DNA of 33,419 bases from Methanobacteriota archaeon (GTDB taxonomy: Archaea; Thermoplasmatota; Poseidoniia; Poseidoniales; Poseidoniaceae), in the NCBI GenBank assembly GCA_018701175.1, contig JABIWF010000009.1, positions 1-33,419 on the forward strand. The letters are read 5' to 3'. Shown here piece by piece: positions 7,632-10,401 of this stretch; the stretch's first letter is position 1; each line of letters starts with the position of its first letter. A model generated the notes under the pieces. It was not told where the DNA came from and ran no database searches. It was given only the letters and a program-made list of their open reading frames with translations. Made by a program: the position numbers and the translations under genes.

Positions 7632-10401
7632 TGAAATCGATGAAGAACAACAAGAAGACCAAACGATCTCTACGGAGAATGTTCTCAACCATCCGCTCAA
7701 CGATGAGATGAAAACATCGTACATCAACTACGCAATGTCGGTTATTATCGGAAGAGCACTACCTGATGCGCGTGATGGTTTGAAGCCGGTCCATCGTAGA
7801 GTCCTCTACGGAATGTACGAAGGCGGCCATACTTCGGAAAAGAAATTCAGCAAGTCAGCTCGTTCAGTCGGTGAAGTGATGGGTAAGTACCACCCTCACG
7901 GTGATCAATCAATTTACGACACAATGGTTCGAATGGCTCAAGAATTTTCACTTCGATACCCGCTTGTTGACGGGCAAGGCAACTTTGGTTCAATTGACGG
8001 AGATCCTCCTGCGGCTATGCGTTACACAGAAAGCCGCCTTGACAAAATCGCAAAGCACATGCTTGAGGATATTGATAAGAAAACCGTAGATTTCCAGCCT
8101 AATTTTGACGATTCTGAACAAGAACCTACAGTTCTTCCATCTCGCCTTCCGAACCTTTTGCTCAACGGAAGCGATGGAATTGCGGTCGGTATGGCTACGC
8201 GCATTCCCCCTCATAATTTGACTGAGATTGCTGGTGCCATCCATATGCATGTTAACCGGATTATCGAGGAAGGTGAGGCCAACACAGGCATGCCTCAAAT
8301 CTCTATAGAAGAATACATGGAGCATGTCAAAGGTCCTGATTTCCCTACCGGTGCATCCATCCACGGAATTGACGGAATCTATGATATGTATTCCTCTGGA
8401 AAAGGCCGATTCCATGTGCGCTCAAAGTGCGATGTACTGGACGATTCAAAGGGCAAGAGAATAATTATTCATGAAATCCCGTATCAAGTGAAAAAGGCAG
8501 ATATGCTGGTTCACATCGCAGAACTGGTTACCAAGGGTACAATCATTGGTATTCGTGACATCCGAGATGAATCATCGAAAGAAGGTATCCGTGTCGTCAT
8601 TGAAGTCAAGAACAACGCCGACCCACATGCTGTATTGAATCAACTGTTCAAATCCAGCCGTTTGCAGGAATCTTATTCTGCTAACATGATGGGGATTTTG
8701 GACGGTCGTCCCGTTCTTCTTACTCTACCGGTTATGCTGCATACTCACGTATCACATCGCGAATCAATCATTGAACGCCGAGCGCAGTTTGACTTGAATA
8801 AAGCACAGGCTCGTGCGCACATTCTTGAAGGCCTTGTCATGGCACAAGACCGTATTGATGATGTCGTTGCAGTTGGAAAAGCCAGTTCCAGTCGAGAACA
8901 ATTTGAAGCCGTTCTTCAAGGAAATGAAACCATGTCTGGTATTGCGCCGTTTAGTTTCACTGAAGCCCAGGCTAAGGCTATCGCTGAACGTCGTTTGTAC
9001 CAGCTTAGCCGACTTGACGTCGACAAAGTTCAGAATGAACACGCTGAATTGAAACTCAAGATTGCAGATCTACAGGAAATCATTGCTTCTCGAACTCGCA
9101 GATTGAGTATTTTGCTCAGTGAATTGGACGATATGGTTGAACGGCACGGCGACGAACGCCGTTCATTCATTGACCCAATGCCTCTTTCCATGAACCGTGA
9201 AGACTTGATTGAAGAGAGGGCAATTGCAATCACTTTGAGCGAAGACAACTACATACGCCACATGCCAGTTGAACTCTTCCGTGTCCAAAACCGCGGTGGC
9301 AAAGGCCTCAAGGGCGTTGCTACGAAGAACGAGGATACCCCTCAATTGATTGTAACATGTTTCAGTAAAGACAGGTTGCTCATCTTCACCGATAGGGGCC
9401 GAGTCTACGGCCTCAAGGCGTGGGAAACTCCGCTCGGAAGCCGTCATGCTCGTGGCAGCCATATCCGAAACGTCATTGAGAAGATTCAGGACGATGAAAA
9501 CATCGTCACAATCCTACCTATTACGCGTGACTTGCTTGAATCTCCGGAAGGACACTTCCTGCTGTTTGCCACCCGTCTAGGACTCATTAAGAAAACCAAG
9601 TTGGAAGAGTATGTGCGCATTAACCGCAACGGCAAATATGCTCTCCGCTTCAAACTTGACAATGACAGCCTTGTCAACGTTCGAACCGGGACCAATGATT
9701 CCTCAGTCGTAATGATTTCAAGCACTGGGTTTGCAAGTCGATTCGCCTGTTCAGATATTCGTTCATCAGGTCGAGTTTCGGCAGGTGTGTACGGTATCAA
9801 AACTGGTAACCGTAAAAACGCAGACGGCGGCCATGTAGTTGCTATGATGGCCACTGAAAATACCGATACGCAGATTCTGACCATTACCCGCAACGGAATG
9901 GCAAAGCGTAGCCGTCTTGGCACATCAGAAAAGATTCCAGATTTGGATGCTGATGGTAATCAGAAGATTGATGCCGAAACCGGTGAAGGAAAACTGCGAA
10001 CCGATGGATACCGAAAGACGAAACCTGGTGCAAAGGGTGCGTACACCATGAATCTTGACCATGAGAACGGCGATTTCATCATCAGCGCACGTCAAATTCC
10101 TAACCTCGATGACAATCTCTTCCTTCTTACCAAGAAAGGTATGATGATTCGAATTAACGCTGCTCAAACCAAGGAAACCAAGAATAAGAAGTCCAAGGGA
10201 ACGCGGGTAATGGAACTCCGAAACGCCAAGAGAACTGGGTTTGTCGACCACATTATCTTCGCAGCACGCCTACCTGCTGAGTTGCTTGAAACACCTGCTG
10301 ATGAGTTTGAAGAAATGGATACCGACAATGATGGCATCGTCACTCGTGAAGAATTCGAGGCAGCACAGGCGCTGAAAGCCATTCATTCTGAAGAAGAGTG
10401 A
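7621..10401 (+). CDS. gyrA: DNA gyrase subunit A with C-terminal EF-hand
   Basis: This is the breakage-reunion subunit of gyrase. Seen in order: the winged-helix region ([19 protein letters not shown]), the catalytic tyrosine Y135 in AAMRYTE, the coiled-coil and tower region, then a six-bladed wrapping domain opening with the GyrA box QNRGGKG (556-562). The box marks a true supercoiling gyrase rather than Topo IV. At 926 residues it is somewhat longer than E. coli GyrA (875). Two additions stand out. One is an insertion in the wrapping domain near 774 containing [11 protein letters not shown]. The other is a C-terminal tail with a complete EF-hand: helix about 892-899, 12-residue loop D900 to E911 ([12 protein letters not shown]), helix to about 920. 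It starts at TTG 7621, coupled to gyrB. The core call is certain; the EF-hand's role is inference. Confidence 0.97.

What the first reader, a model, noticed from the sequence alone, without database searches (positions are those of the whole stretch)
10294..10383. Complete EF-hand at the C-terminus of gyrase A
The 926-residue GyrA ends in a helix-loop-helix with a 12-residue loop [12 protein letters not shown] (D900, D902, D904, G905, V907, E911), which fits the canonical calcium-coordinating positions 1, 3, 5, 6, 8 and 12. In E. coli the acidic GyrA tail modulates DNA wrapping by the C-terminal domain. An EF-hand in that place suggests a calcium-dependent switch on supercoiling. I know of no described gyrase with this architecture. 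The motif is seen directly; regulation is inference.
Basis: partly seen in the sequence, partly recalled or inferred. Interest (0 to 1): 0.7.

Follow-up and report, generated by a model that had tools for sequence, protein, structure and literature searches.

The report
Calcium-binding-type tail on archaeal gyrase
In a group of abundant ocean archaea, the enzyme that coils DNA often ends in a small, well-preserved module of the kind that usually binds calcium, which hints that calcium may tune DNA coiling in these cells; no calcium binding has been measured.

Summary
The 926-residue GyrA at 7621-10401 (+) ends in a complete canonical EF-hand loop, D900[11 protein letters not shown]911. The host is a Ca. 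Poseidoniales (marine group II) archaeon.

It is not chance. Of 147 distinct closed Poseidoniales GyrA ends, 51 carry an intact loop, one (L048) has lost position 1 and 95 lack the module. In 33 representatives, loop positions 1, 5, 6 and 12 are invariant and position 3 is D or N. pN/pS is 0.07 at ligand and key positions against 0.91 in the distal spacer.

The module has come and gone: at least 10 state changes on a quick, tail-free GyrA tree. It was in 0 of 20 GyrA ends read from other Thermoplasmatota.

Best reading: a solo Ca2+-binding EF-hand within the acidic GyrA tail that makes DNA wrapping Ca2+-responsive. Binding is strongly implied; regulation is inference. Ca2+-modulated gyrase is already reported for M. 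tuberculosis, with the site between the two GyrA domains, so the idea is not new; this position and lineage appear to be. The same genome carries EF-hand pairs on a V-ATPase subunit I-like protein, an amino-acid permease and others, so the gyrase may belong to a wider calcium-sensing toolkit.

The parts
7621..10401 (+). gyrA, 926 aa, DNA gyrase subunit A with breakage-reunion domain and beta-pinwheel CTD (start as listed mechanically)
   Evidence: PF00521 E 2.7e-148; PF03989 E 1.4e-30; TIGR01063 915.6 bits over 877; CTD model matches solved GyrA structures at E down to 1.9e-22
9286..9306 (+). GyrA box, QNRGGKG (residues 556-562)
   Evidence: Invariant in 32 of 32 EF-bearing CTDs aligned (columns 54-60 of the window fragment that begins at nt 9127)
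10285..10293 (+). variable linker (LET) between ..FAARLPAEL at the end of the propeller and the EF-hand
   Evidence: Length differs between relatives in alignment A3
10294..10317 (+). EF-hand E helix (PADEFEEM), with Phe at -4 (F896)
   Evidence: F at -4 in 33 of 33 representatives; only a short helix (5 residues) in the AlphaFold2 tail model
10318..10353 (+). 12-residue loop [12 protein letters not shown], residues 900-911; ligand-type positions D900, D902, D904, E911; G905 and V907
   Evidence: conservation and pN/pS
10354..10383 (+). EF-hand F helix ([10 protein letters not shown])
   Evidence: F/Y13 in 33 of 33, A15 and A16 in 32 of 33 each; helix residues 33-47 of the tail model
10384..10398 (+). 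terminal acidic cap HSEEE; an EEE end is kept with or without the EF-hand
   Evidence: EEE at the end of 146 of 147 distinct closed GyrA ends
5682..7631 (+). gyrB, 649 aa, overlaps the start of gyrA as listed; DNA gyrase subunit B
   Evidence: TIGR01059 912.1 bits over 882.4

Best explanation
[quoted passage not shown] Ca2+ binding should fold the tail and neutralise part of its negative charge. Because the acidic tail of E. coli GyrA controls how DNA wraps the CTD, folding or unfolding of this tail would shift wrapping and so the supercoiling set point. As solo EF-hands normally pair (general knowledge), the two tails of the A2B2 enzyme may pair with each other, or with an EF-hand of another protein. 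Shown: the module, its conservation, its place on a true GyrA. Strongly implied: Ca2+ binding. Inferred: the effect on wrapping, and pairing.
For: Intact loop with Glu12 in 33 of 33 representatives; pN/pS 0.070 over loop positions 1, 3, 5, 6, 8 and 12 against 0.450 in the other loop positions, 0.286 in the propeller end and 0.907 in the distal spacer, with pS of 0.70-0.94 in every part, near saturation. A definition by the F helix, which fixes none of the loop positions 1-9, 11 and 12, still gives 51 intact of 52. Profile match to solved Ca2+-binding EF-hand proteins, E 8.1e-12; 32 of 32 members hit EF-hand_1 and EF-hand_5 at E <= 1e-3. GyrA identity and GyrA box. E. coli tail passages. Ca2+ modulation of another gyrase, as cited. 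EF-hand pairs on other proteins of the same genome. Two Na/Ca-exchanger-family proteins, a family also found in 11 of 14 control genomes, so this is weak support.
Against: No binding or activity data. The EF-hand is solo, and single EF-hands often bind Ca2+ weakly (general knowledge). AlphaFold2 gives only moderate confidence (tail alone 73; in the CTD model the tail blocks score 47-65, so no packing on the propeller can be read, and the first 80 residues of that fragment score under 50). Foldseek with the tail model finds only 4 weak matches (best E 4.3). The module is missing from 95 of 147 distinct closed GyrA ends and changed state many times, so gyrase works without it. The window's own sequence is 0.2-0.5 bits under Pfam's EF-hand_1 cut-off in the two tail scans, and 4.9 bits under it in the whole protein. 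Ca2+ effects are not general to gyrases: T. gondii gyrase lacks the M. tuberculosis site and showed no Ca2+ support of decatenation or relaxation (passage of PMC4585971).
Confidence: 0.5

Rival explanations
1. Ca2+-dependent docking: the EF-hand binds Ca2+ but acts as a hook that pairs with another EF-hand protein (or the membrane), placing gyrase in the cell or recruiting a partner, without changing its catalysis.
For: EF-hands usually work in pairs (general knowledge); no second hand is seen in GyrA. The genome has other EF-hand proteins, among them a 640-aa ORF with several EF-hands. The linker length varies, as expected for a tethered hook.
Against: No partner was identified. EF-less relatives 92-93% identical exist, so a partner interaction would have to be dispensable.
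Confidence: 0.22
2. Structural ornament: the module binds Ca2+ or Mg2+ constitutively and only stabilises or shields the acidic tail (for instance from proteolysis); there is no switching.
For: The EEE cap is kept with or without the EF-hand (146 of 147 ends), so the acidic end may be the working part; the module is absent from many relatives and changed state repeatedly.
Against: Ligand-level conservation including Glu12 across diverged GyrAs, with synonymous sites near saturation, is more than a spacer needs.
Confidence: 0.22
3. Chance resemblance of an acidic low-complexity tail to an EF-hand.
For: GyrA tails of the order are acidic on average, with or without the module, and the window alone misses the Pfam cut-off.
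Against: Shuffles reach the loop in 4-14 of 200,000; conservation with near-saturated synonymous change; hydrophobic E and F helix positions conserved too; profile E 8.1e-12 to solved EF-hand proteins.
Confidence: 0.02

Closest known systems
M. tuberculosis DNA gyrase with its Ca2+ site in GyrA (Karkare et al. 2012, not held; as cited in passages of PMC4643928, PMC4297366, PMC4585971)
   Same: A gyrase whose GyrA is said to bind Ca2+ (a putative EF-hand in the words of PMC4643928) and to shift between supercoiling and relaxation/decatenation with it.
   Different: There the site lies between the N-terminal domain and the CTD; here a canonical 12-residue loop follows the CTD at the very C-terminus, in archaea. 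No activity data here.
Acidic C-terminal tail of E. coli and B. subtilis GyrA (Tretter and Berger 2012; Lanz et al. 2014, seen as cited in PMC11626157)
   Same: Acidic extension directly after the beta-pinwheel, reported to control wrapping or supercoiling.
   Different: The E. coli tail is described as unstructured (PMC11626157) and poorly conserved (PMC6821735); this one holds a conserved loop with two predicted helices.
Canonical EF-hands of solved Ca2+-binding proteins (best by sequence profile: calcium-binding protein 2 (2jnx), another calcium-binding protein (2m7n), KChIP2, calsenilin)
   Same: Loop chemistry, Glu12, hydrophobic positions of the two helices.
   Different: Single hand fused to a topoisomerase, without a partner hand in the same chain.
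Archaeal DNA gyrases surveyed in PMC9348778 (passages seen)
   Same: Same enzyme class in archaea, with GyrA box.
   Different: The terms EF-hand, calcium, Poseidon and MGII do not occur in its main text; supplements not read.

Membership tests
DNA gyrase subunit A | Equivalog profile above curated cut-off | tested here: met
   TIGR01063 915.6 over 877 bits; NF004043 942.1 over 902
DNA gyrase subunit A | GyrA box Q(R/K)RGG(R/K)G (definition read in PMC9348778) | tested here: inconclusive
   QNRGGKG, invariant in 32 of 32; six of seven positions fit, the second is N instead of R/K
DNA gyrase subunit A | Beta-pinwheel CTD | tested here: met
   Foldseek of the CTD model: E. coli, Salmonella, Xanthomonas and other GyrA CTDs, E down to 1.9e-22; the first 80 residues of the fragment are modelled with pLDDT under 50
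DNA gyrase subunit A | Negative supercoiling activity | not testable with these tools
   Needs purified enzyme
Canonical EF-hand | 12-residue loop, D1, D/N3, D/N/S5, G6, hydrophobic 8, E12 (definition recalled) | tested here: met
   33 of 33 representatives
Canonical EF-hand | Helix on both sides of the loop | tested here: inconclusive
   Model helices 19-23 and 33-47 of 50, block means 86 and 88 pLDDT over residues 21-40, but 73 overall and a short E helix; VIA Z 3.2, rmsd 1.7 over 35 residues to EhCaBP1
Canonical EF-hand | Pfam gathering score | tested here: inconclusive
   Window tail 24.9-25.2 bits against 25.4 for EF-hand_1, whole protein 20.5; 32 of 32 relatives match at E <= 1e-3, their bits not listed
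Canonical EF-hand | Binds Ca2+ | not testable with these tools
   No binding data
Paired EF-hand (calmodulin-like) domain | Two adjacent EF-hands in the chain | tested here: not met
   One EF-hand stretch in GyrA at E <= 1
M. tuberculosis-type Ca2+-modulated gyrase | Putative EF-hand between N-terminal domain and CTD | tested here: not met
   The only EF-hand stretch found is at residues 894-915, after the CTD; a non-canonical site elsewhere was not looked for
GyrA with regulatory acidic tail (E. coli type) | Acidic extension after the last propeller blade | tested here: met
   Mean net charge -13.0 in the last 45 residues of 51 EF-bearing GyrAs, -8.1 in the last 25 of the other 96
GyrA with regulatory acidic tail (E. 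coli type) | Tail controls DNA wrapping | not testable with these tools
   Needs activity assays with tail deletions

The most novel reading that the evidence does not exclude
Poseidoniales cells run a cytosolic Ca2+ signalling network with EF-hands built directly into core machines (gyrase, the V-type ATPase subunit I-like protein, an amino-acid permease, membrane proteins), and the gyrase EF-hand makes genome-wide supercoiling a direct read-out of cytosolic Ca2+.
Probability: 0.25. Interest if true: 0.88.

Novelty: new variant of a known kind. Interest (0 to 1): 0.62.

Why it matters
[quoted passage not shown] Nature also supplies the control: close relatives with gyrases 92-93% identical lack the module, so its effect can be measured by comparing natural enzymes. 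It would give a second case of Ca2+-tuned gyrase besides M. tuberculosis, and a lead into intracellular calcium sensing in archaea.

Tried and rejected
Chance motif: rejected by shuffles, codon-level conservation and profile search. Circularity of defining EF tails by the loop pattern: tested with a pattern on the F helix (positions 10, 13 and 16). 56 of 147 tails fitted; 51 have an intact loop, 4 were matches inside the propeller of short-tailed GyrAs (L079, L181-L183) and 1 (L048) had Tyr at position 1. I do not know whether L048's change is real or a sequence error.

A second EF-hand in GyrA: none found. Remnants of the EF-hand in the 300 bases downstream of EF-less gyrA: 0 of 96 examined by one pattern (the 96 include L048). 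In-frame remnants: EF-less tails of L028 and L029 keep an acidic ..EDEFDS.. stretch (L030 ..EDDFDS..) like the start of the E helix, and L009 and L014 lack a block next to L008. This fits in-frame deletion but does not prove it; the automatic alignment of L028-L030 places its gaps otherwise.

Mobile elements as carriers: the profile of the tails found no relative in viral contigs (374 pattern stretches, none confirmed); the last 66 aa against plasmids gave one weak, partial match (E 0.4).

Gain or loss: one gain and 13 losses, or 12 gains without loss (root placed on L136-L138), or 10 changes with direction open. The tree is a quick LG+G4 tree with long branches flagged, so the count is approximate. 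Apart from each other, the nearest tails of L116 and L119 come from GyrAs only about 70% identical in the core, so exchange of tails is possible; not resolved. Foldseek and VIA on the tail model were weak.

The EF-hand_5 family as a sign of calcium biology: at the lax threshold used (E <= 10) it also rings in 12 of 14 control genomes, over its cut-off in 3, so the count of weak hits in this genome means little.

Full report
WHAT IS THERE. The ORF 7621-10401 (+) codes for 926 residues from its listed TTG start. It is DNA gyrase subunit A above NCBI's equivalog cut-off, overlaps the end of gyrB as listed (5682-7631), and carries a GyrA-box-like QNRGGKG that is invariant in the 32 EF-bearing CTDs I aligned. 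Its last 35 residues read [35 protein letters not shown]. Residues 900-911 are a textbook EF-hand loop. The window lies in a genome of 1.9 Mb in 149 contigs. Its nearest named relatives are Ca. Poseidoniaceae / Poseidoniales, the marine group II archaea; the group name for this genome is inferred from them.

IS IT MORE THAN CHANCE. Shuffling the last 60 residues gives such a loop in 4 (strict) to 14 (loose) of 200,000 trials. The tail scores 24.9-25.2 bits with Pfam EF-hand_1, just short of the 25.4 cut-off; the whole protein scores 20.5. As a profile, 32 such tails find solved Ca2+-binding EF-hand proteins at E down to 8.1e-12.

HOW WIDESPREAD. Of 318 genomes of the order, 295 have a GyrA match. 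Of 201 records (the window, L001-L200), two loci (L139, L140) gave no C-terminus; the other 199 reduce to 151 distinct GyrA cores. Of these, 147 end in a stop: 51 have an intact EF-hand loop, one (L048) has an EF tail with position 1 changed to Tyr, and 95 have no EF-hand. The remaining four are cut by a contig end; one of them (L057) is cut inside the loop. Because genomes were picked, these are not frequencies. Outside the order: the 8 genomes of the same class but another family that one search lists had no match to the GyrA end (138 further misses are not listed there), and 20 GyrA ends from other Thermoplasmatota, taken from the stronger matches and read directly, have an EF-hand in 0 of 20. 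Bacteria were not surveyed.

SELECTION. In 33 representatives (under 96% core identity), positions 1, 5, 6 and 12 and the Phe at -4 are invariant; position 3 is D (24) or N (9), position 8 V (17) or I (16). pN/pS is 0.070 over positions 1, 3, 5, 6, 8 and 12, 0.450 over the other six loop positions, 0.286 in the end of the propeller and 0.907 in the spacer beyond the F helix; pS is 0.70-0.94 in these parts, so synonymous change is near saturation. These are Nei-Gojobori counts pooled over pairs, which are not independent; the propeller part was compared without gaps, and the spacer only in pairs of equal length. Tails chosen by an F-helix pattern that fixes none of loop positions 1-9, 11 and 12 keep the loop in 51 of 52 cases, so the result is not made by the selection pattern. 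The EEE terminus is kept in 146 of 147 distinct ends, EF or not.

HISTORY. On a tree of 109 GyrA cores, tail excluded and L048 counted as EF, the EF state needs at least 10 changes (9 forced by starred branches; shuffled mean 29). With the root on L136-L138, a single gain needs 13 losses and no-loss needs 12 gains. Codon alignments of close pairs are compatible with in-frame deletion. I favour one old gain with many losses and perhaps some exchange of gyrA or its 3' end (apart from each other, the nearest tails of L116 and L119 are on distant cores), but the quick tree cannot settle it.

STRUCTURE. AlphaFold2 on the tail alignment gives helix-loop-helix (residues 19-23 and 33-47 of 50), with block means of 86 and 88 pLDDT over residues 21-40 but 73 overall. 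In the CTD plus tail model (pLDDT 69, pTM 0.71; first 80 residues under 50) the pinwheel matches solved GyrA CTDs, and the tail blocks score 47-65. Foldseek with the tail model is weak (4 matches, best E 4.3, EhCaBP1), VIA Z 3.2 over 35 residues. The assignment therefore rests on sequence profile and conservation more than on the model.

SURROUNDINGS IN THE GENOME. GyrA holds the third-best EF-hand_5 place of its genome, after two places in one 640-aa ORF. Other EF-hand pairs sit in a V-ATPase subunit I family protein (L206), in an amino-acid permease (L212), in a 572-aa stretch of a membrane-protein-like ORF ending in SEEE (L209) and in a 417-aa ORF (L204); the 640-aa ORF (L201) has several EF-hands. 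That these hands face the cytosol is inferred, not tested. A segment with the subunit I EF pair finds relatives in 92 of 115 genomes of the order: 57 of f1 and 35 of f2; of 23 misses the 20 listed are all f2. Its matches include different host proteins. Two Na/Ca-exchanger-family proteins are encoded, as in 11 of 14 control genomes that have members of this family. A survey of archaeal protein families had already noted families with calcium-binding domains specific to Poseidoniales subgroups (passage of PMC9258230).

MECHANISM. In E. coli the unstructured acidic GyrA tail controls DNA wrap (passages of PMC11626157; PMC6821735). Here the acidic tail contains a Ca2+-type EF-hand. The simplest mechanism is that Ca2+ folds the tail and changes its charge, and so shifts wrapping by the pinwheel. 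In the A2B2 enzyme the two solo hands could pair. Only the sequence-level steps are shown; binding, folding on Ca2+, pairing and regulation are inference. Rivals are docking to an EF-hand partner and a constitutive structural role. Against a general rule, T. gondii gyrase lacks the M. tuberculosis site; with Ca2+ in place of Mg2+ it did not supercoil, and Ca2+ did not support its decatenation or enhance its relaxation (passage of PMC4585971).

AGAINST WHAT IS KNOWN. M. tuberculosis gyrase is described as modulated by Ca2+ bound between the two domains of GyrA (as cited in passages of PMC4643928, PMC4297366 and PMC4585971; the original was not held). So Ca2+-tuned gyrase exists as an idea and as reported data; the C-terminal position and the archaeal lineage are new as far as I could search. 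Searches combining gyrase or topoisomerase with EF-hand, calcium or archaeal terms listed no title or abstract start about an EF-hand at the end of GyrA, and the main text of the archaeal gyrase survey PMC9348778 does not use the words EF-hand or calcium. The library holds only open-licence papers, and listings were judged by title, abstract start and counts.

VERDICT. A real, selected EF-hand on a real gyrase, seen so far only in some Poseidoniales and often absent from close relatives. A new variant of a known kind, with a testable and partly precedented mechanism.

Noticed in passing
L206:343-2709 (own genome, contig C18 around 8737-8979): A 789-aa V-ATPase subunit I family protein (PF01496 E 1.5e-26) carries an EF-hand pair at residues 344-401; a segment with this pair has relatives, not always in the same protein, in 57 f1 genomes.
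   Followed up: partly
L212:1-1581 (own genome, contig C20): Amino-acid permease (PF13520 E 1.1e-39) with an EF-hand pair at its C-terminus (residues 463-522 of the 527-aa fragment).
   Followed up: partly
L209:1345-3060 (-), own genome, contig C88: Membrane-protein-like ORF (by eye) with a C-terminal EF-hand pair that, like GyrA, ends in SEEE.
   Followed up: partly
L201:601-2520, own genome, contig C103: 640-aa ORF with cysteine pairs that look like zinc ribbons (by eye) and several EF-hands (EF-hand_1 69.8 bits).
   Followed up: partly
GyrA C-termini of the order, e.g. window 10390-10398: The terminal EEE is kept in 146 of 147 distinct GyrA ends although the spacer before it evolves almost freely in EF-bearing tails; reason unknown.
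   Followed up: partly
Tree: L116, L119, L122, L126 (f2 g19), L181-L183 (f2 g17), L118/L127 (f2 g14): GyrAs of some f2 genera sit inside f1 branches, which suggests gyrA exchange between the two families or a tree artefact.
   Followed up: no
L177 (G163, f1 g10) and L185 (G307, f2 g22): GyrA matches in genomes of two families have the same score, range and tail; likely contamination of one assembly, or recent transfer.
   Followed up: no
L046: A record titled uncultured Rhodobiaceae bacterium encodes a Poseidoniales-type GyrA with the EF-hand; probably a mis-binned contig.
   Followed up: no
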